Of a DNA stretch of 27,856 nucleotides, positions 529-14,867 are shown piece by piece (within the stretch, counting starts at the first letter, position 1; each line of letters starts with the position of its first letter). The stretch is from a virus. Both the position numbers and the translations under genes were made by a program. The DNA lies in the IMG/VR virus record IMGVR_UViG_3300032134_000014, positions 1 through 27,856 of that record, one strand, 5' to 3'. The notes under the pieces were generated by a model. It worked only from the letters and a program-made list of their open reading frames with translations. It did no database searches and was not told the DNA's origin.

Positions 529-1464
529 ATGGAAACCTTTTTGTGGGTAGAATTGTATCGCCCCAAGGATATAGGATCATGCGTACTTCCTAATAATCTG
601 AAAAGTACATTAACTGATTTTGTTAGTGAAGGTAATTTACCAAATCTAATTCTATCAGGAACTTCAGGCGTAGGTAAAACTACTGCTGCAAAAGCCATGT
701 TAGATGAGTTGGGTTCAACTCATATGATGATTAATGGTAGTGAAGAATCTGGCATTGATGTTCTACGAACCAAAATTAAAAACTTTGCGTCTACTGTATC
801 ACTTCATGGTGGACGTAAATATATTATTTTGGATGAAGCAGATTATCTAAATCCACAGTCAACTCAACCAGCCTTGCGTGGGTTCATGGAAGAGTTTCAT
901 AAAAATTGTGGTTTCATTCTTACATGCAATTATAAAAATCGCCTGATACCGCCATTACATTCTCGTTGTAGTGTTGTGGATTTCTCTATTCCTAATTCAG
1001 AGAAGCCAAAACTTGCTAAAGAATTTATGGAAAGAGTTGTTACAATTCTAAATGATCAGAATGTAGAACATGATAAAAGAGTTGTTGCCGAGGTAATCAA
1101 TAAATACTTTCCAGACTGGCGTAGGGTATTAAATGAACTTCAACGGTATTCTGTATCAGGTGCAATTGATGCTGGTATGCTTGTTGATATTGCCGAGGTA
1201 AATATCAAAGAGCTGATGCACTCTATGAAGAAGAAGGAATTTACTAATGTTCGTAAATGGGTTGTCAATAATCTTGATAATGATCCTGTACGTTTGTTCC
1301 GCCGCATTTATGATAATCTTTATGAGTTTGTGGATGGTAGTAGCATACCCCATGTGGTTGTTGTTTTGGGGGAGTATCAATATAAAGCGGCGTTTGTTGC
1401 AGATCAAGAAATAAATCTGATGGCTTGTTTCACCGAGATTATGGCAAGGGCTAAATTCAAATGA
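529..1464 (+). CDS. 44: Clamp loader large subunit gp44 (AAA+ ATPase)
   Basis: ATPase subunit of the gp44/gp62 clamp loader, which opens the gp45 ring and places it on primer-template DNA. The protein has 311 residues (T4 gp44 has 319). Walker A is G-T-S-G-V-G-K-T at about residues 44-51, Walker B is Y-I-I-L-D-E-A-D at about 98-105, and the clamp-loader S-R-C motif is at about 145-147. The start is a W-V-E-L-Y-R-P segment typical of clamp loaders (T4: E-Q-K-Y-R-P). An AAGGAA ribosome site lies 8 bases before the ATG. The stop overlaps the next start as ATGA. Its partner gp62 is not next, as it is in T4, but lies beyond three oxygenase genes. Confidence 0.95.
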   Translation: METFLWVELYRPKDIGSCVLPNNLKSTLTDFVSEGNLPNLILSGTSGVGKTTAAKAMLDELGSTHMMINGSEESGIDVLRTKIKNFASTVSLHGGRKYIILDEADYLNPQSTQPALRGFMEEFHKNCGFILTCNYKNRLIPPLHSRCSVVDFSIPNSEKPKLAKEFMERVVTILNDQNVEHDKRVVAEVINKYFPDWRRVLNELQRYSVSGAIDAGMLVDIAEVNIKELMHSMKKKEFTNVRKWVVNNLDNDPVRLFRRIYDNLYEFVDGSSIPHVVVVLGEYQYKAAFVADQEINLMACFTEIMARAKFK

Positions 1465-2093
1465 CAGAAAAAATCCCTCTAGCTAGAAATGAAATAAAAA
1501 ATTACGATATAAATGTAACTAGACCCATTTATATCAAAAACATATTTGATGAGGTTGGTTCTGATTTACATTCTTCTCTGATAAGAATTATTCGCAAAAC
1601 AGGGGATGAATGGAAAAGACGATTGACTGTTGTTCAGGCCGATATTACAAATCTAAACATGCATCATCAGCATCCTAGTTTTAATCAGTTATGTGATATC
1701 GTAATTCCATATGCTGAAAAAATGGGATCAACTCCTATCAAATGTAGAGCTTCGGATTGTTGGGGTGTTTTATATAATAAGAATGATTTTGCGGTTGCAC
1801 ATGCACATTGGCCAAATATATGGTCATGGGGGTACTATGTAAAGGTGCCAGGAGGTTCAAGCCCTCTAGTTTTTCCAGAAGGTAAAGAAGGAAATTATTA
1901 TGTATTTCCACAAGTAGGAGATTTAGTTATCTTCCCTGCTTGGATAAAACATGAAGTTCCACCATCTACGGTTGATGAAGATAGAATGTTGGTTGGTGGA
2001 AATCTTGAAAGAATTCCTCATAAGGATTTGCCATTACCCAGCACAGAAGAAATAAAAAAGGTGGTTCAGCCTTATACCGAAAAGAGTAGTTGA
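1461..2093 (+). CDS. Putative 2OG-Fe(II) oxygenase, phage type (1 of tandem trio)
   Basis: Protein of 210 residues resembling the phage family of putative 2-oxoglutarate/Fe(II) oxygenases (TIGR02466-like). The C-terminal half fits a double-stranded beta-helix core: A-H-A-H-W at about residues 113-117 would supply the first metal ligands, followed by W-S-W-G-Y-Y-V-K. A distal His sits in W-I-K-H-E-V-P-P (about 164), and an Arg about 11 residues on (E-D-R-M, about 175) could bind the 2OG carboxylate. The first ligand motif is H-x-H rather than H-x-D, so the second ligand is uncertain. The start overlaps the gp44 stop (ATGA) and the next gene starts directly after this stop, suggesting coupled translation. 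The substrate is unknown. Confidence 0.6.
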   Translation: MTEKIPLARNEIKNYDINVTRPIYIKNIFDEVGSDLHSSLIRIIRKTGDEWKRRLTVVQADITNLNMHHQHPSFNQLCDIVIPYAEKMGSTPIKCRASDCWGVLYNKNDFAVAHAHWPNIWSWGYYVKVPGGSSPLVFPEGKEGNYYVFPQVGDLVIFPAWIKHEVPPSTVDEDRMLVGGNLERIPHKDLPLPSTEEIKKVVQPYTEKSS

Positions 2094-2675
2094 ATGATTG
2101 ATGTATATGATGATGTTTTAGAAGAACACAATGCTATATTAGTTGATGAAGAAGTTAAAAAGCTATCATGGAAATATGATTACCCATCTGAGCCTAGTAA
2201 ACCAAATAAACACTGGCATATTCTTTGCGGGCACAATAAAGAAGAATGCGATAAATCAAATTTTTATTGGGCTCATACTATATTTAATATGTTCATGGAT
2301 AAGCTTGATTTCAAATCTAAATATAATGTTGATAACTATATTCGTATATATTGCAATGCTCATACGCATGGAATAGAGCCACATCTTCATATAGATGATG
2401 GTGATTTCACAATGATATACTATCCTCGAATGGATTGGAAAAAGGAATGGGGTGGCGGCACTTTGGTTGATGATACTCTTGTTCCTTATGCTGGAAATAA
2501 ATTGGTTGTATTTACTGCTAGTCTTCTTCATAAAGCCATGCCGGTGTCCAGAGAATGTTATCAGTTAAGAACTTGCGTTGTTTTTAAATGTAATGTAATT
2601 GATAATGCTAAAAAAACAGTTGAGTTTTATAAGAATGCTATTGAGCAAGGAAATTATAAAATAAAGTTTGAATAG
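2094..2675 (+). CDS. 2OG-Fe(II) oxygenase, prolyl-4-hydroxylase-like (2 of trio)
   Basis: Protein of 193 residues with a full set of candidate 2OG-dioxygenase residues: H-I-D at about 99-101, a distal His in L-L-H-K-A at about 146, and an Arg in Q-L-R-T at about 159. Between them runs a W-G-G-G-T-L segment and the strand N-K-L-V-V-F-T-A-S, the usual layout of prolyl-4-hydroxylase-like folds. Fe(II), O2 and 2-oxoglutarate would be used to hydroxylate a substrate that the sequence does not reveal. Marine T4-like phages often carry such genes. The ATG directly follows the TGA of the gene before, with no good ribosome site of its own, so it is probably translationally coupled. Confidence 0.75.
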   Translation: MIDVYDDVLEEHNAILVDEEVKKLSWKYDYPSEPSKPNKHWHILCGHNKEECDKSNFYWAHTIFNMFMDKLDFKSKYNVDNYIRIYCNAHTHGIEPHLHIDDGDFTMIYYPRMDWKKEWGGGTLVDDTLVPYAGNKLVVFTASLLHKAMPVSRECYQLRTCVVFKCNVIDNAKKTVEFYKNAIEQGNYKIKFE

Positions 2676-2686
2676 GAGAATTAAAA

Positions 2687-3394
2687 TTGTCGGAGAATAA
2701 AACAGTTCATTTTGAAACTATACCACAATTAACGTTGGGGTTTGCTGGCATAGGCTTAGGTGAGGTGAATATTATTAATAAGTATATTGATGATAACACC
2801 AATAGATTGCCAGATTTATCGTCACAACTAGTAGGGCAAATAAAGCAAGATGAAAAATCAAAACAACTAGAATTTGATTTAAACGATACTGTTCCTAAGC
2901 AGTTAAGTAGGTTTTTTATTATGTGTGCAAAAGAATATGCTGCTGAACATCCAATGTCTGATCGTGTTAAAGAAATTATTGGGCCCAAAGAAGAATATGT
3001 TGTTAAAACAATGTGGTCGGTACATAGCTATGCTGGTGACTACAATCCTCTGCATGAGCATGGAACTGCCAGTGGAAGAGGCGTATCTATGATTGCATTT
3101 TTAAAACTCCCGTCACAAATATCTGAGATAGCAGACGACATGAAAGAGGGTGAAATCGGTGTGCAACATGGCAATTCTGGTAGTACAGATGGTTTAACTC
3201 AATTTGTTTGGGGTAGAGACAGTATGTATGATATACCTAGATTTAAACATCCTTCCTTTGGATATGTTCAGCCAGAAGTAGGTAAGGTTGTAATATTTCC
3301 AATTTGGTTGCTTCATCAAGTCGCACCATTTTTTGGTGAAGGTGAAAGGCGCACAATGTCTTGCAACATAGATATTATTAATAGTCATGTATGA
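2687..3394 (+). CDS. Putative 2OG-Fe(II) oxygenase, phage type (3 of trio)
   Basis: Protein of 235 residues. The start is taken as the TTG at 2687 because a GGAG lies 8 bases before it. Candidate metal ligands are H-E-H-G at about residues 123-126 and the distal His in W-L-L-H-Q-V at about 210, with E-R-R-T at about 220-223 supplying a possible 2OG-binding Arg. The order of motifs (L-H-E-H, a G-x-V-S-x-I-A-F-L-K-L strand, G-K-V-V-I-F-P-I-W-L-L-H) matches the same phage oxygenase family as the gene at 1461, so the two are likely related. Its 3' end overlaps the start of gene 62 by 8 bases. The substrate is unknown. Confidence 0.6.
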   Translation: MSENKTVHFETIPQLTLGFAGIGLGEVNIINKYIDDNTNRLPDLSSQLVGQIKQDEKSKQLEFDLNDTVPKQLSRFFIMCAKEYAAEHPMSDRVKEIIGPKEEYVVKTMWSVHSYAGDYNPLHEHGTASGRGVSMIAFLKLPSQISEIADDMKEGEIGVQHGNSGSTDGLTQFVWGRDSMYDIPRFKHPSFGYVQPEVGKVVIFPIWLLHQVAPFFGEGERRTMSCNIDIINSHV

Positions 3395-4204: not shown

Positions 4205-6691
4205 ATGAATTTTTATACAAATGTGCTTCAGTGGGGCAACAATCTTCTTGTTCGTGCTGTCGTAAATAATAAGCGTGAAAATTTTAGAATAAGATATTCT
4301 CCCACACTTTATGCTCCTGTAGAAAAGAAAACTCCATACAAAAATCTTGATGGCGGTTATGTCACTGATTTGACATTTTCTACCATGAAAGAAGCTAAGG
4401 AGTGGGTGGACAGTCATAAATCTCAGCCAGAACTTATATATGGTAATACTCAATATCCTTACACTTATATTGCTGACACTTACAAGGGTAGAGTTGATTG
4501 GGATTTAGAGAAGCTTCTCATAGTCACGATTGATATTGAGGTTCAATGTGAAAACGGATTTCCTTCACCAGAACTTGCTGAAGAAGAGCTTCTATCTATC
4601 ACCATTAAAAATCATCAGAGCAAACGTATTGTTGTTTGGGGTATTGGTGATTTTGAAACAGATCGTGAAGATGTAACATATATAAAATGTGAGAGCGAAG
4701 TACATCTACTAAAAGAGTTTCTTGTGTTTTGGGAAAAGTATTGCCCTGATATTGTTACGGGATGGAATTCTGAATTCTTTGATATACCATATGTTTGTAA
4801 TCGTATCAAAAAGTTGTTTGGAGAGGAAGAGCTGAAACGTCTGTCGCCGTGGGGTGGAGTAAAGGATAGATCATTTTATCGAATGGGCCGGGATCATCAG
4901 ATATATGATATACAGGGTATCGCTGCACTTGACTATTTTGATCTATATCGCAAGTTCACATATTCTGCTCAAGAATCCTATCGGTTAGATCATATTGCAT
5001 TTGTGGAATTGGGTGAACGCAAAGAAGGCAATCCCTTTGAAACTTTTCGTGAATGGTATACAAAAGATTATCAGTCATTCATTGAGTATAATATCAATGA
5101 CGTTGAGCTTGTTGACAAATTAGAAGACAAAATGGGTCTTATCCAATTATGTTTAACTATGGCCTATGATGCCAAGGTTAATTATGTGGATGTTCTCGGC
5201 TCTGTTCGCTATTGGGACATTCTGATATATAATTATCTGCGAGAAAAGAATATTGTTATTCCACCAAAACGTAAATCAGAAAAGATAGAAAAATTTGAAG
5301 GTGCTTATGTAAAAGACCCTCAAGTTGGTATGCATAAATGGGTTATGAGTTTTGATTTGAATTCTCTATATCCACATTTGATTATGCAATATAATATTTC
5401 ACCAGAGACACTTATGCCTAGTGAAATAAAAGAAGGAATGGTTGATAAAATACTTGATGGTAAGATTAGAAATACCACTGATCATTGCATGACTCCCAAT
5501 GGTGCATTCTTTCGGAAAGACAAACGAGGATTTTTGCCAGAAATAATGGAGACTATGTACAATGACCGTACAAAATACAAAAGACTTATGCTCGAGGCTA
5601 AGCAACAATATGAGGACACTAAAGACCCTCGACTACTCAAACACATTTCATTATATAACAACATCCAAATGGCAAAGAAGATTTCTCTCAATTCGGCGTA
5701 TGGTGCTATTGGGAATAATTGGTTTCGCTATTTCGATCTTATGGTTGCTACTGCCATTACAACATCTGGCCAGTTATCTATACGATGGATTGAGAAATCT
5801 CTTAACATATATCTCAATAAAATCTTGGAGACAAAAAATGAAGACTATGTTATCGCATCTGATACCGATTCGGTTTATATCACTTTTGACGTATTGGTTA
5901 GTAGGGTGTTTAAGGAGGGAGGAACACCTGAGAAAATTACCGATTTCTTGGACAAGGTTGCAAGTGAGAAGTTGGAACCTTTTATTCTCAAAAGTTATAC
6001 GGCTCTTGCTAAGACTATGAATGCATATGAACAAAAGATGCAAATGTCAAGAGAGGTGATTGCTGACAAAGGAATCTGGACTGCAAAGAAAAGATATATT
6101 TTAAACTCATGGGATATAGAAGGAGTTCGTTATAAAACTCCACAACTTAAAATCATGGGCATTGAAGCAGTCAAGTCATCCACTCCAGCTGTATGCAGAC
6201 AAAAAATTAAGGATGCATTGAACATCATCATGACAGGTGATGAGAAAGAATTAAATAATTTCATTCAAGAATTCAGAGATGAATTTATGAATTTGCCACC
6301 AGAAGATATTGCATATCCTCGCTCGGTAAATGGACTTAAAAAGTTTAGTTCCTCTAATGGTATGTTTGCAAAGGGAGCTCCTATTCATTGCAAAGGTGCA
6401 ATTCTATATAATCATTTGGTGAAGAAACACAAGATGTCAAATAAGTATCCTATTATACAGGAAGGCGATAAGATAAAGTTTCTGCATATGAAGCAACCTA
6501 ATATCTATACCTCAAGTGCATTTTCTTTTTTAACTTCTTTTCCAAAGGAACTTGACATTATTGATCGAATAGACTATGATGAACAATATACTAAATCGTT
6601 TGTAGAACCGTTAAGATTTATCACTGAGAAGATACTGTGGAAAATTGATGACAGCTATGGAACACAAGGTACGCTAGAGGATTTCTTTTAA
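4205..6691 (+). CDS. 43: DNA polymerase gp43 (family B)
   Basis: Replicative DNA polymerase with 3'-5' proofreading, 828 residues (T4 gp43 has 898). Exonuclease motifs: D-I-E at about 110-112, N-S-E-F-F-D ending at about 193, and Y-N-I-N-D with Asp at about 299. Polymerase motifs: A, D-L-N-S-L-Y-P at about 384-390; B, K-x3-N-S-A-Y-G at about 491-499; C, D-T-D-S at about 553-556. The C-terminus ends in L-E-D-F-F, resembling the clamp-binding tails of family B enzymes. The N-terminus (M-N-F-Y-T-N-V, then G-N-N-L-L-V-R) aligns with the start of T4 gp43, which supports the ATG at 4205 although no ribosome site precedes it. Confidence 0.98.
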   Translation: MNFYTNVLQWGNNLLVRAVVNNKRENFRIRYSPTLYAPVEKKTPYKNLDGGYVTDLTFSTMKEAKEWVDSHKSQPELIYGNTQYPYTYIADTYKGRVDWDLEKLLIVTIDIEVQCENGFPSPELAEEELLSITIKNHQSKRIVVWGIGDFETDREDVTYIKCESEVHLLKEFLVFWEKYCPDIVTGWNSEFFDIPYVCNRIKKLFGEEELKRLSPWGGVKDRSFYRMGRDHQIYDIQGIAALDYFDLYRKFTYSAQESYRLDHIAFVELGERKEGNPFETFREWYTKDYQSFIEYNINDVELVDKLEDKMGLIQLCLTMAYDAKVNYVDVLGSVRYWDILIYNYLREKNIVIPPKRKSEKIEKFEGAYVKDPQVGMHKWVMSFDLNSLYPHLIMQYNISPETLMPSEIKEGMVDKILDGKIRNTTDHCMTPNGAFFRKDKRGFLPEIMETMYNDRTKYKRLMLEAKQQYEDTKDPRLLKHISLYNNIQMAKKISLNSAYGAIGNNWFRYFDLMVATAITTSGQLSIRWIEKSLNIYLNKILETKNEDYVIASDTDSVYITFDVLVSRVFKEGGTPEKITDFLDKVASEKLEPFILKSYTALAKTMNAYEQKMQMSREVIADKGIWTAKKRYILNSWDIEGVRYKTPQLKIMGIEAVKSSTPAVCRQKIKDALNIIMTGDEKELNNFIQEFRDEFMNLPPEDIAYPRSVNGLKKFSSSNGMFAKGAPIHCKGAILYNHLVKKHKMSNKYPIIQEGDKIKFLHMKQPNIYTSSAFSFLTSFPKELDIIDRIDYDEQYTKSFVEPLRFITEKILWKIDDSYGTQGTLEDFF

Positions 6692-7273
6692 ATGAATACA
6701 AAAATTACTGACTTAGTTGATATGGATGAAGTTAAGTTAAACATGGCTCGTTGCACATGGAAACTTTTACGTGCTGGTCTTGAAGAGTGGACTCCAGAGG
6801 TTGCAAATGCAGTGCCTCGTGGAAAACTATATGAGATCAAATATATGTTGTCTCGTTTACCTTATACAATGAAGGGGGTGCCTTATGCACATTCATTAAC
6901 TGTAATCGAAAATTATGGATATGTTAAAAAGACTATAAAAGATACTGTAACTACTGATCACTTTTTTTGTTCTTACACCACTGGTGAATTTGCATTAGAT
7001 AATCCAGACACTTATCTTGCAGATGGTACTTTGGAAAAATTTTCAATGGAGTTATATCCCTTTACGTTTTTAACCAATTGGTTAACCCAAGAAGAAAATA
7101 AGAAACTAAGCAATTTGAAAGGAATAGAATTAACACAAGACAAATATGCTAAACTTGGTATAAAATTATATATAGATGACGAACAGGTAGAAAATCCCGA
7201 ATTGCCTGCAGGGTTTACAGAGTGGGAAGATGAAAAATATTTTCCCAACAGTCTCTATAGACTTTGTGCTTAA
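6692..7273 (+). CDS. Unknown protein downstream of gene 43
   Basis: Protein of 193 residues that I do not recognise. It has no signal peptide and no membrane segment. It is mixed in charge with many aromatic residues, for example a Y-P-F-T-F-L-T-N-W-L segment in the C-terminal half followed by an acidic tail region (D-D-E-Q-V-E-N-P-E). The ATG directly follows the polymerase stop (TAA-ATG), so translation is probably coupled to gene 43. It ends 8 bases before the chosen start of the methyltransferase gene. Position suggests an accessory protein of replication or DNA modification, but no motif supports either. Confidence 0.7.
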   Translation: MNTKITDLVDMDEVKLNMARCTWKLLRAGLEEWTPEVANAVPRGKLYEIKYMLSRLPYTMKGVPYAHSLTVIENYGYVKKTIKDTVTTDHFFCSYTTGEFALDNPDTYLADGTLEKFSMELYPFTFLTNWLTQEENKKLSNLKGIELTQDKYAKLGIKLYIDDEQVENPELPAGFTEWEDEKYFPNSLYRLCA

Positions 7274-7281
7274 AGGACAAT

Positions 7282-8496
7282 ATGAGGTATTATCGTTATA
7301 CGCTGGATGATTTAAAAGAGTCGTCAGACAGAAAACTATTCACCTACATATCATTCTTTGCAGGCGGCGGTGGTTCTTCTGCTGGTTATAAACTTGCTGG
7401 TGGTGACTGTCTATTTGTAAATGAATTTCAGCAAGTTGCAGTTGATACTTATCTTGCGAACTGGCCAGATACTCCACATATATGTGGTGATATTAAAAAT
7501 GTCACAGGAAAACAGATTATGGAAATGACAGGCCTTAAAGTTGGTGAATTGGATATTCTCGACGGTTCTCCACCATGTCCGCCATTTTCAATGTCCGGCA
7601 CAAAACAAAAAGGTTGGAACAAGGAGAAGATGGCATATGGTATGAAGCAACAGAATATTGAAGACCTAACATGGGAGATGATTCGTATTGCTGGTGAGAT
7701 GAAACCAAAAGTTATCATATGCGAGAACGTCAAAGGTTTAACGATGGAATATGCAAAGCAGCATTTAGATCGTATGGTAACAGACTTTGAAGGTCTTGGT
7801 TACACAACTAACTTTAAGGTTCTTAATGGTATACATTTTGGAGTACCACAGAAACGCCAGAGAGTGTTTATTGTGTCAGTACGCAATGATGTTATGGATG
7901 ATATTGGCATGCCGTGGATGGCGATCTATAATGGGAACATATTTCCAGATGGTGCAATGCATGAGGAACCTACACTAGAAGATGCAATAGGTGATCTACG
8001 ACTCGATAACGAAAATAATGTTGAGGCATATGAGTTGCGTGAGACAATGAAGAAAAGTGCTAAATATAAATGGTTAAAACGTCTACCCAAGAATCCTGAT
8101 AAGGTTGTATCAGTGGGTTCGGATGTAGTAGGGCCCTGGTACGACAAGGTGATTGCACATAGAAAGAAGTGGGGAAAAAGTATTCCAGAAGCAAAGAGTT
8201 CATTCTATCAGAGTCGTAGAGTTCCTTGGCATCAAGCAAGCCATACATTGTCAGAACAGGGCCTTATGACCTCATTATCAGTTCATCTTCATGTTGAAGA
8301 AGATCGTGTATACACCACCAAGGAAGCAAAACGAATAATGACTTTGCCAGAAGATTACATTTTAATAGGAACATTGAATGAGAAACTTGCAAGAATTGGA
8401 TTGATGGTAGCACCGATGATGATGAAATATCTTGCAGAAAGTATATATGAGAAAGTGCTGAAGGGCTATCATGAAATACATAACAGCAAAAACTGA
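7282..8496 (+). CDS. C5-cytosine DNA methyltransferase
   Basis: Transfers a methyl group from S-adenosylmethionine to C5 of cytosine in DNA; 404 residues. Motif I is S-F-F-A-G-G-G-G-S-S-A-G at about 24-35. The catalytic loop is G-S-P-P-C-P-P-F-S with the nucleophile Cys at about 99. E-N-V is at about 148-150, and Q-K-R-Q-R-V-F-I-V (motif VIII) at about 190-198. Late motifs A-K-R-I-M-T-L-P-E-D-Y and a C-terminal V-A-P-M-M closing motif are present, so the enzyme looks intact. The ATG at 7282 is preferred to the TTG at 7264 because AAAGGA lies just before it. It overlaps the TET-like gene by 26 bases, suggesting 5mC is the substrate of the next enzyme. Target sequence unknown. Confidence 0.95.
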   Translation: MRYYRYTLDDLKESSDRKLFTYISFFAGGGGSSAGYKLAGGDCLFVNEFQQVAVDTYLANWPDTPHICGDIKNVTGKQIMEMTGLKVGELDILDGSPPCPPFSMSGTKQKGWNKEKMAYGMKQQNIEDLTWEMIRIAGEMKPKVIICENVKGLTMEYAKQHLDRMVTDFEGLGYTTNFKVLNGIHFGVPQKRQRVFIVSVRNDVMDDIGMPWMAIYNGNIFPDGAMHEEPTLEDAIGDLRLDNENNVEAYELRETMKKSAKYKWLKRLPKNPDKVVSVGSDVVGPWYDKVIAHRKKWGKSIPEAKSSFYQSRRVPWHQASHTLSEQGLMTSLSVHLHVEEDRVYTTKEAKRIMTLPEDYILIGTLNEKLARIGLMVAPMMMKYLAESIYEKVLKGYHEIHNSKN

Positions 8497-9418
8497 TCTT
8501 GGAGAAAAAGAAACATTTGAAAGGTGGAATGGTAAATTCTACCAAGAATCTGATCTAGATCAGATTGTTTATGCGACAGAAGATACTGTTGTAATGCGAC
8601 CTGATGCTACTCTTGATGGTAAAGGTGTTCCTATTGCATATGTTATTACAAATGCATTTCCCAATGACAACATAAGGAACATTTTGTATTCTATTGAGGA
8701 AACTTCAGTGATGAGAGCAAATTGTTCTGGCCCTATTGATAAAGAAGAAATGGCTGCAAAGGGATTAATTGAAGGAAAAGATTATAAATTACGAAGCCCC
8801 AATTCTTATTATGTAAAAACAAAATCTGGTGGTTGGGGAATGATTGCTTATGCAAATGAAATTAATTCTGTTATGGTTGGTGTAAAAAGAGGACGATTTA
8901 CAGGAAAGATCAATATTTCGAATCCTGATAGGTGGAAAGAATTAAAAGAACTTTGCTATTATAATGAAGAGGCAATGAAGAAAGCTGATCCTGAGTTACA
9001 TCAACGCCAAAGGAAATTTGCAGAAGAAACAATCAGCACAGAACATCGTCATGGCATGATAACAACTTTGAGTGCTAATCGGTATAGTGCATTACAAAGT
9101 AAAGCCATGAGTGTTCATAGTGATGGTAAAGATGTAGAATATACAACTATGTGCTGCTTCCGACAAGGTGATTATGAAGGGGCATACTTATCTTTTCCAA
9201 GGTGGGGAGTGGGATTGGATTTGCCAGATAATAGTGTATGTATTGCAGATTCACAATCTCTGCATTGCGTCACAGATATTCGTGGATCAGGACAACGATT
9301 TACCACAGTAGCATATACTGATCGCTCTTGTGCTACCTTGGGAAACATGGGAAAAAGTGAAAGATTGATTGGAAGATTTGCGAAAAAAGAAATTGGTAAT
9401 TTAGAAGAGTTTATTTGA
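8471..9418 (+). CDS. TET/JBP-like 2OG-Fe(II) dioxygenase (5mC oxidase)
   Basis: Protein of 315 residues. The C-terminal third has the dioxygenase core: H-S-D at about 216-218, a strand G-A-Y-L-S-F-P-R-W, then G-L-D-L-P-D-N-S-V, a distal His in D-S-Q-S-L-H-C-V at about 265, and Arg in G-S-G-Q-R-F-T-T-V-A-Y at about 276. This order and spacing fit TET/JBP nucleic-acid dioxygenases better than prolyl hydroxylases. Phage TET enzymes that oxidise 5mC to 5hmC next to a methyltransferase and glycosyltransferases are known from marine viral DNA. Here the gene overlaps a C5-cytosine methyltransferase by 26 bases, with GAAGGG as ribosome site, and a T4 alpha-glucosyltransferase homologue lies 2 kb on. 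The ~200 N-terminal residues are not recognised. Confidence 0.75.
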   Translation: MKYITAKTDLGEKETFERWNGKFYQESDLDQIVYATEDTVVMRPDATLDGKGVPIAYVITNAFPNDNIRNILYSIEETSVMRANCSGPIDKEEMAAKGLIEGKDYKLRSPNSYYVKTKSGGWGMIAYANEINSVMVGVKRGRFTGKINISNPDRWKELKELCYYNEEAMKKADPELHQRQRKFAEETISTEHRHGMITTLSANRYSALQSKAMSVHSDGKDVEYTTMCCFRQGDYEGAYLSFPRWGVGLDLPDNSVCIADSQSLHCVTDIRGSGQRFTTVAYTDRSCATLGNMGKSERLIGRFAKKEIGNLEEFI

Positions 9419-9426
9419 AAAAATAC

Positions 9427-9455
9427 TTTACAAATACATTATGCTGTAGTATAAT
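9427..9455 (+). promoter_or_regulatory. Sigma70-type promoter for the 9486 gene
   Basis: TTTACA at 9427-9432, a 17-base spacer, then a perfect TATAAT at 9450-9455. Transcription would start near 9462, leaving about 24 bases of leader with an AAAGAGATAA ribosome-site-like stretch before the ATG at 9486. It lies in a 67-base gap, one of the longest in the window, and marks the start of the AT-rich glycosyltransferase block. Confidence 0.7.
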
Positions 9456-9485
9456 ATTGAAACTATATAATAAAGAGATAAAATT

Positions 9486-10928
9486 ATGACCCCTATTATT
9501 GAAGATGAAGACCGATTTGCCAACACACTACTAACAAATTGTGTTGCCGCAATATTAGTATGGAATGATGTTCTACAATGCGATATTTCATATTACTTTA
9601 GAAAAACTTTTGGAAAACCATCTAAGGTGGAAGAACTAAAAAAGTATAGAGGTTCTTCACAGGGTAAGAATAGAGCAAATCCAAAAATTTTAAAAGCAAT
9701 AGAGAAATCATCAAAACCACCAAGGATTAGAGTTTTAGAGCATAATGTTCTTCATCATGATTTAGGTTTTCATGAGCAGAAAGCTGTGATGTTACACAAC
9801 TTTCCAATAGGCGGTCATGACAAGAAGTCAAAAGATTGTTTCAATGAGAAATACCCAACTGATGGCATTTCAAAAGATTGCATGAGGAGTCACATTGCTG
9901 CTGATCTTTTGAGAGAAAAGATAAAGAAGCACCAAGACCCAAATGATGCATTTAAGTTTCCAACTGGCTTTTCAACTAAAGAAGAAATAAAATATTTGAA
10001 AAAAAATAATTTATTCGTGCAAGCTAGATGGGAAAAAGAGGGCAGTAACGATGCAGTTGAATATTACAAAATAAAAATGGAGGAAAAACCATATCCTAAT
10101 GAATGGTTAGGGAAGTTTTGGTTATTAATGCCTAGGGAAGGTAGTAATCAACCAATTGGTACAGGCAGTAATTATCACCCAAGAATTTTAGACGGTAATC
10201 AAAGTGGTGCAGCTTGTATCAGAGTTCCAGATATGCCTGGTTTGAATGATATCAGAATACCATATGAAGATCACTGTCTAATAAACGAAACTGATTTAGA
10301 AACAATAGGTAATGAATTAAATGCAGAGCCGGAGATAAAATCAGATTATGTTGATGATGAGGACATATTAAGAAATTTAAGAAATACATTAGTAAGAAAT
10401 AAATTATTTACGAAGAAAGGAAATCCACAAATTGATCATTATCTGGTGAACAAACTCTTTAAGCCTTTACACAAAACCAACAGAGAAATACGCTGGTATA
10501 AGAATCAAATTAAAAAAGAGTATAAAGAAGAAAAAGAAACAAAAGAACGACTCCAACTAGGATACTATGACTTTCGTGAAACTGCTCTAAAAGATAATGA
10601 TGGAGATAATAATAATAAAAGAAAGTTTGATGAACTTGTAAAACCTATAGGTTTAGGCAAATTTTGCAAATGGCATCAAGTTACTGATGGTTTTGAAGAA
10701 AAAATTTCAAAGAGGATACAGCATGATAAAAATGGAGTCACGCCAAAGAAACTTTTGACCTTTGTAACATTTCCAATGGAAGCTGGTTATCTTAAAAGTA
10801 AGAACGATGATAAATTTTGGGAGTGGGAAATAAAAAAGTTTAGTGAAGTTTGTGAAGTAACAATAGCTTTATTAAATCCAACTGGCAAGGAGTACACTTT
10901 ATTTGACCAATCTAGTATTCCAAGTTAA
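9486..10928 (+). CDS. Unknown 480-residue protein in the modification cassette
   Basis: I do not recognise this protein. It is rich in Lys, Asp and Asn, with no signal peptide or membrane segment. A His-rich stretch, H-N-V-L-H-H-D-L-G-F-H-E-Q-K-A-V at about residues 85-100 and then I-G-G-H, could bind metal, but it fits no motif I can name. A basic/acidic helical stretch near the middle (K-K-E-Y-K-E-E-K-E-T-K-E-R) may be coiled coil. It has its own promoter and overlaps the following glycosyltransferase gene by 26 bases, so the two are probably co-expressed. Its place between the TET-like oxygenase and two glycosyltransferases suggests a role in making or attaching the DNA modification; this is inference from context only. 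Confidence 0.8.
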   Translation: MTPIIEDEDRFANTLLTNCVAAILVWNDVLQCDISYYFRKTFGKPSKVEELKKYRGSSQGKNRANPKILKAIEKSSKPPRIRVLEHNVLHHDLGFHEQKAVMLHNFPIGGHDKKSKDCFNEKYPTDGISKDCMRSHIAADLLREKIKKHQDPNDAFKFPTGFSTKEEIKYLKKNNLFVQARWEKEGSNDAVEYYKIKMEEKPYPNEWLGKFWLLMPREGSNQPIGTGSNYHPRILDGNQSGAACIRVPDMPGLNDIRIPYEDHCLINETDLETIGNELNAEPEIKSDYVDDEDILRNLRNTLVRNKLFTKKGNPQIDHYLVNKLFKPLHKTNREIRWYKNQIKKEYKEEKETKERLQLGYYDFRETALKDNDGDNNNKRKFDELVKPIGLGKFCKWHQVTDGFEEKISKRIQHDKNGVTPKKLLTFVTFPMEAGYLKSKNDDKFWEWEIKKFSEVCEVTIALLNPTGKEYTLFDQSSIPS

Positions 10929-11583
10929 TATAAAACCTAACGGAGTTAAAACTTCTGGCAGAAAAAAGTTTGCATACTCTAATTCTCTTTATGATTTTTC
11001 AAATCAAAGAGCTAAAGATTATGCAGATAAAGTTGGTGCAGATTATTTTTGTTTGAATAACACAGATTGGTTAGGTAACAACTACGCACCTTGCTATCAT
11101 AAGTTGTATGTTTATGAATTACTCAATAAATATGAGAAAGTATTTTACTTAGATTCTGATGCTATAATTACAAAGTTGTGTCCAGATATATTTAAGTATA
11201 GTAAATTTTCAGCTGTGTTAGATAATGCGATACACACTCCAAGTGGTAAAAAAAGATTACAAAGAAAGTTAGATATACATAATATAAAAAAACAACATGA
11301 TTATTTTTGTAGTGGAGTAATACTATTTGATAAAAAGTTTTTACAAACAACTAAACAATATTGGAAAGATGAATTAGATTATTGGAAAGACATTAAAAAT
11401 GGCCAACATGACCAATCTACACTTAATGTATTGATTTCAAAATACTATGGAAAATACAATTTATTAGATGCAGATTGGGGTGCTCATTGGAAAATTGGTA
11501 AATTCATAAAACACTATAGTGGGCCCACACAAACATCAGAATGGACAGAAGAAAAGTTTTTGAGTTGGGAAGAAAAAATATGA
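10903..11583 (+). CDS. Glycosyltransferase, GT8/glycogenin-like
   Basis: Protein of 226 residues with a GT-A-type layout: first strand N-L-V-F-Q-V-N-I, then a D-Y-F-C-L-N strand, Y-A-P-C-Y-H-K-L-Y-V, and F-Y-L-D-S-D-A-I-I with the metal/nucleotide-sugar D-x-D at about residues 84-86. Later come F-C-S-G-V-I-L-F and H-D-Q-S-T-L-N, both typical of GT8-like enzymes. It would move a sugar from a nucleotide sugar to an unknown acceptor. The TTG start at 10903 is supported by AAGGAG 10 bases upstream and by the protein beginning at its first strand. It overlaps the neighbours on both sides (ATGA with the next). It could add a second sugar to glucosylated 5hmC, or act on a host glycan. Confidence 0.8.
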   Translation: MTNLVFQVNIKPNGVKTSGRKKFAYSNSLYDFSNQRAKDYADKVGADYFCLNNTDWLGNNYAPCYHKLYVYELLNKYEKVFYLDSDAIITKLCPDIFKYSKFSAVLDNAIHTPSGKKRLQRKLDIHNIKKQHDYFCSGVILFDKKFLQTTKQYWKDELDYWKDIKNGQHDQSTLNVLISKYYGKYNLLDADWGAHWKIGKFIKHYSGPTQTSEWTEEKFLSWEEKI

Positions 11584-12755
11584 AAGTGGCTATTGTTCTT
11601 GGCAGAGGCATCGAAGGGTGCGGTGTTACAAAATACACCGTAGAGCTAGAAAGATGGTTACTTAATAATTCTTATAATCCTACAATATATGCATCTAAAG
11701 ATAAAAAATGGTCTAGGAATGATGCACATAAAATTAAAAACTTAGTTCATGTTCGTTTTGATAAAGATAGTTTTGATGAAGTATATGAGGGGTGTAGAAG
11801 TTCTGATATAATAATTTTTAATTCGTTACCATCTATAGGCCACAGTAAAAGATGTCAAGATAATTTTGCAAAACTTTTAAATTTAAGTGTTTGTAAAATC
11901 TTAATACAACACGACCATAATAAATCTTCATTAAAGAGAAATGCTCTACTACAAGATTCATATGAAAAATCAGATATACTATTTGCACATTCCACCACAG
12001 GAGATTTTGCTGATATGGTAAATACTCCAAATCTATTTGACATGAGAGATAGAAAAATTAATCTGATGCAGCCAGGTATATCATTTGTAGATTATGAAAA
12101 GTATTATAAGCCTATTAGTGAGCAAGACAAAAACCATCACAAATGGATAGGTAGAACTGCAAGATGGAAAGGTTATGATTTAATGTTTAATTTTCATAAC
12201 AACTATCTTAAAGATTTAAACCAACTAACTACTTTTGAGGGTATTGAGAAAAGTCCAGTTTTTATAGAGTTTAAAAATGAATACGAGTTTTATGATGAAT
12301 TAGGACAAAGCCCAGAAGATATTAATTATCAAGAAAGGTATGGAAAAAAACCAACTGTTTTTTCTCAATATATAAATTCAGAATTATTAGACAGATTATC
12401 CAAATGTGGTTTTGGATATCAACTAAGTATATTGGATAATAGATTTATAGAAAAGTCTTTAGAATTTACTCACTTAGAAATTGTTGCTGTAGGCGCAATA
12501 CCAATATTTAGAAAAGAGTATGGTGATGCTTGTATTCACCGTCATTATGATAAACCTCTAACAGAATTAGATAGTGGGACAGTGTGGTTATCTAATGATA
12601 ATATGGAAGAATGTAAAAACTTAATAGACGAATTATTAAATGATGATATTTTGAGAGATGAGTATAGAAATAAAGCATTTGAATTTTATTCCCATTATGA
12701 TTCTAAATATGTCATGGTTGATTTGATGAAAATTGTGGATGGTACAAAATGCTAG
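11580..12755 (+). CDS. agt: DNA alpha-glucosyltransferase (T4 alpha-GT homologue)
   Basis: Protein of 391 residues (T4 alpha-GT has about 400) that matches the T4 enzyme along its length. The N-terminus G-R-G-I-E-G-C-G-V-T-K parallels T4 A-R-G-L-E-G-C-G-V-T-K. Q-H-D-H at about 110-113 is shared, as are W-I-G-R-T-x-x-W-K-G at about 189-198, Y-I-N-S-E-x-L-x-R and G-F-G-Y-Q-L-S near 264-283, S-L-E-[FY]-T-H-L-E at about 293-300, and P-L-T-x-x-D-S-G. T4 alpha-GT transfers glucose from UDP-glucose to 5-hydroxymethylcytosine in DNA (GT-B fold). Start: ATG at 11580 overlapping the previous stop, with GGGA upstream; the in-frame ATG at 11541 would add 13 residues not seen in T4. AT-rich codon use. Confidence 0.92.
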   Translation: MKVAIVLGRGIEGCGVTKYTVELERWLLNNSYNPTIYASKDKKWSRNDAHKIKNLVHVRFDKDSFDEVYEGCRSSDIIIFNSLPSIGHSKRCQDNFAKLLNLSVCKILIQHDHNKSSLKRNALLQDSYEKSDILFAHSTTGDFADMVNTPNLFDMRDRKINLMQPGISFVDYEKYYKPISEQDKNHHKWIGRTARWKGYDLMFNFHNNYLKDLNQLTTFEGIEKSPVFIEFKNEYEFYDELGQSPEDINYQERYGKKPTVFSQYINSELLDRLSKCGFGYQLSILDNRFIEKSLEFTHLEIVAVGAIPIFRKEYGDACIHRHYDKPLTELDSGTVWLSNDNMEECKNLIDELLNDDILRDEYRNKAFEFYSHYDSKYVMVDLMKIVDGTKC

Positions 12756-12782: not shown

Positions 12783-13805
12783 ATGAGTGATTTTTTAAAA
12801 AATGTAATTAAGGATGTAGGAAATGAATATGCATCTTTGGTGATTGACGGTGTAGAAGCGGGTGATGTAGATTCCTTCATAGATACGGGCTCTTACATTT
12901 TCAACGGACTACTATCTGGTTCGCTTTACGGTGGACTGGCTGCTAATAAAATTACTGCTCTTGCGGGGGAGAGTGCAACTGGTAAGACTTACTTTCTTAT
13001 GGGCATTGTTAAAAACTTTCTTGACAAAGACCCCAATGCTGGTGTAATTTACTTTGAAAGTGAATCTGCAATCACAAAGCAGATGGTAATGGACAGGGGT
13101 ATAGACCCTAATCGTATGGTCATGATGCCTGTGACAACCGTACAGGAATTTCGTACACAATCTCTAAAGGTTCTGGACTCGTATCTTGCACAGAATGAAG
13201 CAGACAAAAAACCTTTATTCTTATGTCTTGATTCACTTGGTATGCTGTCTACTACCAAAGAAGTAGAAGATACTGCTGATGGTAAAGAGACAAGAGATAT
13301 GACAAGGGCCCAAATCCTTAAAGCTACATTTCGTGTGTTGACTTTGAAGCTGGGTCGTGCCAAGGTTCCTATGGTTGTCACTAATCATACCTATGATGTT
13401 GTTGGTTCCATGTTTCCTCAAAAAGAAATGGGTGGAGGCTCTGGTTTGAAATATGCTGCATCATCTATCATCTATCTGTCCAAAAGGAAAGAGAAAGACG
13501 GTACAGAGATTGTTGGTAATATTATTCATTGCAAGAATCATAAATCACGTTTGACTGTAGAGAATAAGATGGTTGATGTTCGTTTGACATATGACAAAGG
13601 ACTTGATAGATATTATGGTTTGTTAGAACTTGCAGCGAAGTATGAGATATTCAAGAAATTGGCAACACGATACGAGTTGCCTGATGGGATGAAGCAATAT
13701 GGTAAAACAATTTTGAACAATCCAGAAACATATTTTACTGAAGAGATTATGCAAAAATTAGAAACTGCTGCAATGAAAGAATTTAAGTATGCTACAAGTG
13801 ATTGA
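12783..13805 (+). CDS. uvsX: UvsX recombinase (RecA-like)
   Basis: Strand-exchange ATPase for phage recombination and recombination-dependent replication, 340 residues (T4 UvsX has about 390). Walker A is G-E-S-A-T-G-K-T at about 62-69, unlike T4's G-P-S-K-S-F-K-S and nearer classical RecA. Shared T4 features are V-I-Y-F-E-S-E at the glutamate strand, [10 protein letters not shown] (Walker B), D-M-T-R-A-Q, V-V-T-N-H-T-Y and [10 protein letters not shown]. The C-terminal region is shorter than in T4 and lacks its long acidic tail. AGAAGGG precedes the ATG. The 3' end overlaps the next gene by 17 bases. Confidence 0.95.
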
Positions 13806-14316
13806 GAATTGTTGCTCTACATCATACCTTGATATGCTAAAATTTGCTGCAATGAATAGCGCAAATTGGAATCTCAAATATCCAATTGGTATGCCATTTG
13901 AAGATAAACACCTTAAACTTGATGTTATAGAAAATGAACCAGTAGATGAAATGTTAGCTGGAATGGCAATGGGACTTCTTATTCAGATTTATGAATCAAA
14001 AACATATGATGGTATTGCAAGTAAAGATTTGTTTTATCCAGAGGTTTCGTATTGCGGCATAAGTATGAAGGACAGACATAGGCTAGATAATAGACATATT
14101 GACCATGAGCATGATACGGATTACATCAAGATTGTTGGGTTGCTAAACAGTAATTGGAATTCCAAAGACGGTGGATTATTTTTGCATGGTGATGAATCAA
14201 TTCCTATGGTTCCTACTCATTTTGTTGTGTTTGATCCAAGAGTTCAACATTGCGCTTCTGAAATTACTACGCATGAAAAGCGTTTGGGAATTGATTTCAC
14301 AGTAAAGAAAAAATAA
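13789..14316 (+). CDS. 2OG-Fe(II) oxygenase-like protein after uvsX
   Basis: Protein of 175 residues with R-H-I-D at about 102-105 (H-x-D metal site), the strand [10 protein letters not shown], a D-G-G-L-F-L-H-G turn, [10 protein letters not shown] with distal His at about 154, and E-K-R-L-G-I-D with Arg at about 165. This is the compact 2OG-dioxygenase core common in T4-like marine phages. The substrate is unknown. It overlaps uvsX by 17 bases, and its last base is the first base of the next gene, so it belongs to the uvsX-41 operon. Confidence 0.75.
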
Positions 14317-14867
14317 TGGACAATTTTGTTAGAATTTATAATGATGTGATGACAGAGGAGAAGTGCCAATATTTTGTAGACAAATTTGAAGCCCATCCAG
14401 AAATGCAGGAACTTCAAAATAATAGTCAAGGCAAAACTTTGACTATGATGAATTTAATGTCCTCTCCCGACACTCCATTTAAAGAAGATTTGAATTTTCT
14501 TAGCAATTTATTCATGGAAAATGTTGAGAAATATAAAGAAGATTGTCGTATAAAACCATTTCAGTTTCCAGAAAAATTTGGTGTAGAAGCATATAAAATT
14601 AAACGATATCTGCCGAATACAACAGATGAGTTTCCTGCTCATGTAGATGTTAGAGACTATGCAACGGCTAGACGTTTTCTGGTTATGTTTGTATATCTCA
14701 CAGATAATTATGCAGGGCAAACAGAGTTAGAAGTCCTAGCTGGTTCGTCGCCTTGTAGAAGTGGTTCTATTTTACTTTTTCCTCCACTGTGGCCTTGGAT
14801 ACATGCTGGAAAAGCGCCTGTGAAAAATCCAAAATATATCATAGGAAGCTATTTACAATATGTCTGA
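14316..14867 (+). CDS. 2OG-Fe(II) oxygenase, prolyl-4-hydroxylase-like
   Basis: Protein of 183 residues with F-P-A-H-V-D at about 106-111 (H-x-D), R-F-L-V-M-F-V-Y-L-T-D, a S-G-S-I-L-L-F-P-P strand, W-I-H-A-G with distal His at about 163, and N-P-K-Y-I-I-G-S-Y, where Lys at about 173 stands where prolyl 4-hydroxylases use Lys for the 2OG carboxylate. All expected residues are present, so it is probably active. Protein substrate (proline) or another target cannot be told. It overlaps the genes on both sides (1 base upstream, 8 bases downstream). Confidence 0.8.
   Translation: MDNFVRIYNDVMTEEKCQYFVDKFEAHPEMQELQNNSQGKTLTMMNLMSSPDTPFKEDLNFLSNLFMENVEKYKEDCRIKPFQFPEKFGVEAYKIKRYLPNTTDEFPAHVDVRDYATARRFLVMFVYLTDNYAGQTELEVLAGSSPCRSGSILLFPPLWPWIHAGKAPVKNPKYIIGSYLQYV

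What the first reader, a model, noticed from the sequence alone, without database searches (positions are those of the whole stretch)
7282..12755. Post-replicative cytosine hypermodification cassette: methyltransferase, TET-like oxygenase, glycosyltransferases
Seen: an intact C5-cytosine methyltransferase overlaps a protein with TET/JBP-type H-x-D...H...R residues, followed by an unknown gene, a DxD glycosyltransferase and a T4 alpha-glucosyltransferase homologue. Known: phage TET enzymes from marine viral DNA oxidise 5mC to 5hmC near glycosyltransferase genes, and T4 alpha-GT glucosylates 5hmC. Inference: the cassette makes 5mC, then 5hmC, then glucosyl-5hmC on finished DNA at the methyltransferase's target sites, giving sequence-specific rather than global modification as an anti-restriction shield.
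Basis: partly seen in the sequence, partly recalled or inferred. Interest (0 to 1): 0.9.

Follow-up and report, generated by a model that had tools for sequence, protein, structure and literature searches.

The report
TET-route glucosyl-cytosine cassette in T4-like phage
A marine relative of phage T4 appears to make the same kind of sugar-coated cytosine as T4 by a different route: it methylates finished DNA, oxidises the methyl group with a TET-type enzyme that probably rides on the DNA replication clamp, and then adds glucose with a T4-type enzyme.

Summary
Genes 7282-12755 encode a C5-cytosine methyltransferase, a TET/JBP oxygenase, an unknown protein, a GT8-like glycosyltransferase and a T4 alpha-glucosyltransferase (AGT) homologue. 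The TET model's 26 best PDB matches are all TET/CMD1 enzymes; H216, D218, H265 and R276 are invariant in 89 sequences.

New here:
(1) The cassette occupies the polymerase-uvsX interval that holds gene 42 (dCMP hydroxymethylase) and beta-gt in T4.
(2) AGT relatives split into a methyltransferase+TET branch and a gp42 branch; no locus held both. The complete relative Melnitz lacks gp42 and gp56.
(3) 87 of 88 TETs carry a terminal peptide (G-[SN]-L-E-x-F-[FIL]) like the clamp-binding PIP box ending the same phages' polymerase, suggesting TET docks on the sliding clamp.
(4) The methyltransferase's nearest solved relative is the carboxymethyltransferase CmoX (GC motif), but its key Arg350 is Leu in 66 of 66 and CmoA is absent, so it is read as a methyltransferase, probably at GpC.

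Phage C5-MTase/TET/GT cassettes are already published (Burke 2021), so this is a new variant of a known kind. Chemistry and clamp docking are inferred, not measured.

The parts
7282..8496 (+). C5-cytosine DNA methyltransferase (SPPC at residues 102-105 of the 7264 ORF; Leu380 at the CmoX Arg350 position)
   Evidence: PF00145 E 5.7e-55; nearest PDB 8YF3 SpCmoX E 7.6e-79; Leu380 in 66/66 sequences; alignment with SpCmoX
8471..9418 (+). TET/JBP-type Fe(II)/2-oxoglutarate dioxygenase (H216, D218, H265, R276)
   Evidence: PF12851 in 30/30 aligned sequences; invariant residues; AlphaFold2 model pLDDT 78, top 26 PDB hits all TET/CMD1
9392..9415 (+). C-terminal PIP-like peptide of TET (IGNLEEFI), proposed sliding-clamp docking site
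   Evidence: L311 88/89 and F314 89/89 conserved; same style as the polymerase tail; 0.6% background
9486..10928 (+). 480-aa protein of unknown function in the variable slot after TET; possible GIY-YIG-like N-terminus (weak)
   Evidence: no database match; one close relative L084, 58%; distant slot proteins L051, L068, L071, Melnitz gp7; Y54-x-G56-S57, E97, N120 invariant in five
10903..11583 (+). GT8-like glycosyltransferase (DSD motif), proposed second sugar transfer
   Evidence: PF01501, 31 bits, cut-off 24.3; next to AGT in L018, L019, L094
11580..12755 (+). DNA alpha-glucosyltransferase, T4 AGT homologue
   Evidence: PF11440 E 6.8e-67; PDB 1y6f E 7e-79; tree and invariant residues
6692..7273 (+). 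193-aa protein of unknown function before the methyltransferase; relatives occur inside other TET cassettes
4205..6691 (+). gp43 DNA polymerase, C-terminal PIP box QGTLEDFF (landmark and comparison peptide)
   Evidence: PIP box definition in PMC3012046
12783..13805 (+). uvsX recombinase, downstream landmark of the gene 42/beta-gt slot
   Evidence: position and order

Best explanation
This is a post-replicative cytosine hypermodification operon that replaces T4's gene 42 pathway. Proposed steps: the methyltransferase makes 5mC at its target dinucleotide, probably GpC; TET oxidises 5mC to 5hmC in duplex DNA; AGT transfers glucose from UDP-glucose to 5hmC in alpha linkage; the GT8-like enzyme probably adds a second sugar. 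TET probably docks on the phage sliding clamp gp45 through its C-terminal PIP-like peptide, so oxidation follows the replication fork. The product would shield phage DNA from restriction and other defences. Shown by sequence or structure comparison: enzyme families, catalytic residues, gene order, the gp42-or-TET partition and the tail peptide. Inferred: the reactions, the GpC site, the order of steps, clamp binding and the protective role.
For: Family and PDB matches. TET fold: top 26 PDB hits are CMD1, NgTET1, CcTET and TET2 at E 1e-9 to 2.5e-6; other 2OG oxygenases start at 1.8e-5. MT lies immediately before TET in 57 of 75 loci where both are seen, and directly after gp43 in 45 of 46. Same gp43-uvsX interval as T4 gene 42/beta-gt. 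AGT partition: all 18 TET-labelled rows lie on one branch and all 5 gp42-labelled contig rows on another. No PF00303 or gp56 in complete Melnitz, with T4 as positive control. Leu instead of CmoX Arg350 in 66/66, and no CmoA in window or Melnitz. PIP-like tail on 45 of 48 TETs versus 22 of 525 other ORFs, Fisher p about 1e-46 without correction for relatedness. Two phage TETs outside this lineage lack the tail. T4 AGT itself binds gp45 (PMC13216743).
Against: No nucleoside data exist for this phage. The window is a 27.9-kb fragment, so gp42 elsewhere in its own genome is not excluded. The window TET scores below Pfam's gathering threshold on its own. AGT is only about 37% identical to T4 AGT, so its sugar donor could have changed. 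Two unknown proteins (6692 and 9486) lie in the operon. T4 AGT-gp45 binding did not explain the dominance of alpha-glucosylation in T4 (PMC13216743), so clamp docking may matter little.
Confidence: 0.8

Rival explanations
1. The methyltransferase is a CmoX-type carboxymethyltransferase making 5-carboxymethylcytosine, so the cassette does not pass through 5mC and 5hmC.
For: Its nearest solved relative is SpCmoX (8YF3, E 7.6e-79), far above M.HhaI (1.2e-20). One TET contig, L014, carries a CmoA homologue (52%) next to TET.
Against: The Cx-SAM-binding Arg350 is Leu in 66/66 sequences. No CmoA in the window or complete Melnitz and no CmoY in any fetched locus other than S-B43. The published CmoX genome S-B43 has no TET match. 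A hydroxyl-directed glucosyltransferase does not fit a carboxymethyl product.
Confidence: 0.06
2. T4-style pre-replicative pathway: a gp42 outside the window supplies hydroxymethyl-dCTP, AGT glucosylates all C, and MT/TET do something else.
For: The window is a fragment. AGT in T4 and in the L100-L104 contigs goes with gp42.
Against: No TET-bearing locus holds gp42, including complete Melnitz and contigs of 44-61 kb. gp42-linked AGTs form a different branch. The slot of gene 42 is filled by MT/TET.
Confidence: 0.05
3. The cassette is a phage restriction-hypermodification module: the slot protein after TET (480 aa here) is a nuclease that cuts DNA lacking the phage mark, and the modification protects the phage's own DNA. 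(An addition to the best explanation rather than a replacement of it.)
For: In other cassettes the slot holds HNH, ResIII-helicase+HNH or helicase proteins. The 480-aa family conserves Y-x-G-S, Glu and Asn spaced as in GIY-YIG nucleases (judged by eye).
Against: No profile or fold match for the 480-aa protein; the model is poor (pLDDT 59). Other slots hold ParB-like, epimerase or glycosyltransferase-like proteins. Free-standing homing endonucleases (T4 has segA and mobB beside its GT genes) explain nucleases equally well.
Confidence: 0.2
4. The C-terminal TET peptide is part of the TET fold or a conserved hydrophobic tail of another kind, not a clamp-binding motif.
For: No binding data; the window's version ends in Ile rather than the canonical aromatic and lacks the leading Gln.
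Against: The tail is predicted disordered (residues 297-315, pLDDT under 50), Leu and Phe are conserved while neighbours vary, the same peptide ends the polymerase, and besides TET and gp43 it recurs mainly on TAGT and other glycosyltransferase-like proteins.
Confidence: 0.3

Closest known systems
Phage C5-methyltransferase/TET/glycosyltransferase hypermodification clusters (Burke et al. 2021 PNAS, not held; described in PMC12730594 and PMC11404850)
   Same: C5-MTase plus TET plus glycosyltransferases making glycosylated 5hmC from 5mC after replication
   Different: Here the cassette is built into a T4-like replication module in the gene 42/beta-gt slot, uses a T4 AGT homologue, and TET carries a PIP-like tail. 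Whether Burke et al. also saw AGT partners could not be checked.
T4 gp42 plus alpha-glucosyltransferase pathway
   Same: Homologous AGT, same genomic interval, same predicted end product (alpha-glucosyl-5hmC)
   Different: hmC is predicted to be made on DNA from 5mC at target sites instead of in the nucleotide pool at every C; no gp42 or gp56 in the complete relative
CmoX/CmoA/CmoY 5-carboxymethylcytosine system, Synechococcus phage S-B43 (PMC12783734)
   Same: Methyltransferase is a near relative (about 39% identity); GC-motif C5 transfer used as a handle for further modification
   Different: Leu replaces Arg350, CmoA and CmoY absent, TET and glycosyltransferases present
Methylophilales phage Melnitz (PMC9004378)
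   Same: MT (77%) and TET (59%) in the same slot after gp43
   Different: Melnitz has a P-loop kinase and an unknown protein instead of GT8 and AGT; its authors noted only a methylase and a separate 2OG oxygenase
Chlamydomonas CMD1 and Naegleria NgTET1
   Same: Best structural matches of the TET model
   Different: Eukaryotic; CMD1 adds a vitamin C-derived group to 5mC; sequence identity about 10-13%

Membership tests
TET/JBP dioxygenases (PF12851) | Profile match to Tet_JBP | tested here: met
   Window E 4.9e-6 (under the gathering score); 30/30 aligned sequences match, best 1.8e-14
TET/JBP dioxygenases (PF12851) | HxD...H iron triad and 2OG-binding Arg conserved | tested here: met
   H216, D218, H265, R276 invariant in 89
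TET/JBP dioxygenases (PF12851) | TET-type double-stranded beta-helix fold | tested here: met
   Top 26 PDB hits all TET/CMD1
TET/JBP dioxygenases (PF12851) | Oxidises 5mC in DNA | not testable with these tools
   Needs an enzyme assay
T4 DNA alpha-glucosyltransferase (PF11440) | Full-length match and residues conserved with T4 AGT | tested here: met
   E 6.8e-67, 1y6f E 7e-79, invariant residues incl. D115, R204, E306 in T4 numbering
T4 DNA alpha-glucosyltransferase (PF11440) | Transfers glucose to 5hmC in DNA | not testable with these tools
   Needs an enzyme assay
C5-cytosine DNA methyltransferases (PF00145) | Profile match and PPC catalytic Cys | tested here: met
   E 5.7e-55; Cys105 in 66/66
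CmoX DNA cytosine carboxymethyltransferases | Arg at SpCmoX position 350 | tested here: not met
   Leu380 in 66/66
CmoX DNA cytosine carboxymethyltransferases | CmoA Cx-SAM synthase in the genome | tested here: not met
   None in window or complete Melnitz; window genome incomplete
T4-type pre-replicative hmC pathway | gp42 dCMP hydroxymethylase present | tested here: inconclusive
   Not found in complete Melnitz and TET contigs; window genome incomplete
Sliding-clamp (PIP-box) clients | Terminal Qxxhxxaa-type peptide | tested here: inconclusive
   PIP-like I-G-N-L-E-E-F-I without Gln and with one aromatic; definition from PMC3012046
Sliding-clamp (PIP-box) clients | Binds gp45 | not testable with these tools
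   Needs pull-down or structure
GIY-YIG nucleases (for 9486-10928) | Profile or fold match to GIY-YIG | tested here: not met
   No Pfam match, no PDB fold match from a poor model
Glycosyltransferase family 8 | Pfam match above cut-off | tested here: met
   31 bits against 24.3

The most novel reading that the evidence does not exclude
In T4-like marine phages, the DNA-modifying enzymes that act after replication (TET, TAGT and GT9-like glycosyltransferases) carry the same clamp-binding peptide as the replicative polymerase. Hypermodification would therefore be performed by a sliding-clamp-tethered assembly behind the fork, and this route has replaced T4's nucleotide-pool route at the same genomic position while keeping the same glucosyltransferase.
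Probability: 0.55. Interest if true: 0.75.

Novelty: new variant of a known kind. Interest (0 to 1): 0.62.

Why it matters
One glucosyltransferase family served by two unrelated sources of hydroxymethylcytosine, exchanged at one chromosomal position, is a natural experiment on how T-even-type DNA modification evolved. If TET docks on the clamp, it explains how a methyltransferase/oxygenase pathway keeps pace with T4-speed replication, and gives a concrete parallel to T4 AGT binding gp45. The cultured relative Melnitz makes the first two steps directly testable by nucleoside mass spectrometry.

Tried and rejected
Single-sequence PDB search with TET, and a profile search: no hit; the fold comparison was needed. 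Unknown 480-aa protein: no Pfam, PHROG or phage hit; collection scans found only L084 or nothing; AlphaFold2 from 5 sequences gave pLDDT 59 and no fold match. The GIY-YIG idea rests on a few spaced residues only and is not claimed. Carboxymethyl route: considered seriously because of 8YF3, rejected on Arg350 and CmoA. gp42 elsewhere: searched in relatives, not found. Two helper alignments of other slot proteins failed on coordinates and were not pursued. The key prior paper (PNAS 2021) is not held, so its details were taken only as cited by others. Two literature searches gave mostly unrelated papers.
Full report
Setting. The window is a 27,856-base virus record. Its gene order is T4-like: gp45, gp44, gp62, regA, gp43, then the reported cassette, then uvsX and gp41 (these gene names rest on order and on relatives in annotated records). 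The polymerase is 64% identical to that of Methylophilales phage Melnitz and about 53% to those of T4-like cyanophages.

Observation. All five reported genes are present and intact. The methyltransferase matches PF00145 at 5.7e-55, the second protein Tet_JBP at 4.9e-6, the fourth GT8 above its cut-off, and the fifth PF11440 at 6.8e-67. T4 AGT matches along its whole length, E 7e-79. The start codons shared with relatives put the methyltransferase at 7282 and AGT at 11580.

Is it a TET? The window protein is below Pfam's gathering score on its own, but all 30 aligned sequences match the family, best 1.8e-14. H216, D218, H265 and R276 are invariant in 89 sequences. An AlphaFold2 model from 29 sequences (pLDDT 78) has CMD1, NgTET1, CcTET and human TET2 as its first 26 PDB matches; AlkB-like and other 2OG oxygenases follow with E-values at least seven times worse.

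Linkage. A scan of viral contigs gave 80 loci with TET relatives, and further ones came through AGT. Of 92 TET loci, 75 show the methyltransferase, 57 with it immediately before TET; in 45 of 46 loci with both visible, the methyltransferase follows gp43 directly. In a group of loci TET lies just before gp43 instead, usually 46-49 bases away. The core is therefore conserved inside the replication module, while the genes after TET vary: ParB-like, HNH, helicase-HNH, P-loop kinase, TAGT, epimerase or GT-like proteins (the ParB-like call rests).

Same slot as T4 gene 42. T4 reads 43-imm-42-beta-gt-segA-uvsX-40-41. The window reads 43-6692-MT-TET-480aa-GT8-AGT-uvsX-oxygenase-oxygenase-41. The TET pathway thus sits where T4 keeps its hydroxymethylase and beta-glucosyltransferase.

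One glucosyltransferase, two sources of hmC. Twenty-four contigs encode AGT relatives. Those 56-73% identical to the window's AGT lie with MT/TET; those 46-48% identical lie with a homologue of T4 gp42 (57-59% identity over the long matches) and no TET. In the tree, all 18 TET-labelled rows fall on one branch and all 5 gp42-labelled contig rows on another; unlabelled rows are on truncated contigs. The T4 row has a long branch, so its exact place is unsure. PF00303 and gp56 are absent from complete Melnitz while T4 gives both. Melnitz itself has no AGT, so it tests the hmC source of this lineage and not the whole pathway. This association is the best sequence evidence that TET supplies the substrate of AGT.

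Which C5 transfer? The nearest solved structure is SpCmoX, a DNA cytosine carboxymethyltransferase that acts at GC. Its Cx-SAM-binding Arg350, Asn304 in M.HhaI, is Leu in 66 of 66 sequences of the window's family. CmoA is absent from the window and Melnitz; S-B43, which has CmoA and CmoY, gave no TET hit. I therefore read it as a SAM-dependent methyltransferase, and by kinship with SpCmoX a GpC site is likely but unproven. GpC is not depleted in the window: observed/expected 1.18, 1056 sites per strand.

A clamp-docking tail. 87 of 88 complete TETs carry a G-[SN]-L-E-x-F-[FIL]-type peptide, with small variations, at or near the end. L311 and F314 are conserved in 88 and 89 of 89 while neighbours vary, and the tail is predicted disordered. 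The polymerases of the same phages end in QGTLEDFF-type peptides. In T4/RB69 the gp43 C-terminus is a PIP box that binds gp45 (PMC3012046). The motif is in 0.6% of internal 9-mers and in 22 of 525 other ORFs; 16 of these 22 are TAGT (9), a GT9-like family (5; GT9 judged by eye from its sequence) and a GT-like protein (2). TETs of two phages outside this T4-like lineage lack it. T4 AGT binds gp45 in vitro and beta-GT does not, although this did not explain the share of alpha-glucosylation (PMC13216743). Docking is therefore a well-motivated inference, not a demonstration.

Second sugar. In T2 and T6, TAGT adds a second glucose to alpha-glucosylated hmC (PMC13216743). AGT here is preceded by GT8 (window, L018, L019, L094) or accompanied by TAGT (for example L092, L095, L096, L097), so GT8 as the second-sugar enzyme is a reasonable guess.

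Novelty. Phage C5-methyltransferase/TET/glycosyltransferase clusters are published (Burke et al. 2021, as described in PMC12730594 and PMC11404850). I found no held paper reporting the T4 AGT partner, the gene 42 slot exchange or the PIP-like tail, but no search was aimed at the tail alone and the PNAS paper itself could not be read.

Noticed in passing
L014:1-7350, ORF of 238 aa between TET and gp43: A CmoA homologue (52% to S-B43 CmoA) lies next to TET, suggesting that carboxymethyl and TET chemistries may meet in one phage; the methyltransferase there is cut before the diagnostic residue.
   Followed up: partly
window 1461-3394 and 13789-14867: Up to five further small oxygenase-like proteins flank the replication genes; only the 13789 and 14316 proteins were scanned (weak 2OG-FeII_Oxy_3; phrog_61 2OG-Fe(II) oxygenase). 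The three at 1461-3394 were judged by eye.
   Followed up: no
L063:9102-10001, L051:5171-6052, L059:12246-13127: A cassette-associated family (about 294 aa) starts H-P-A-K-I-G-D-I-x-Y-S-L-P-A-V, resembling GT9/heptosyltransferases, and ends in the PIP-like peptide in 5 of 5 complete members.
   Followed up: partly
L037:5028-6068 and nine relatives: The commonest slot protein after TET has a ParB-like stretch (G-x-x-I-A-G-H-H-R-x-x-G), as reported for CmoX cassettes.
   Followed up: no
L079:1190-3001, L019:4936-6720, L087-L089: A 600-aa ResIII helicase with C-terminal HNH domain sits between methyltransferase and AGT or next to the methyltransferase, a possible restriction partner.
   Followed up: no
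L066:1620-2345, L062, L065: An NAD-dependent nucleotide-sugar epimerase (PF01370 E 1.3e-21) directly follows TET and precedes TAGT, suggesting a sugar other than glucose.
   Followed up: no
phages collection: Five records named Cyanophage carry AGT homologues; their hydroxymethylcytosine source was not examined.
   Followed up: no
window 6692-7273: The gene between gp43 and the methyltransferase has relatives within other TET cassettes, often paired with the ParB-like slot protein; function unknown.
   Followed up: partly
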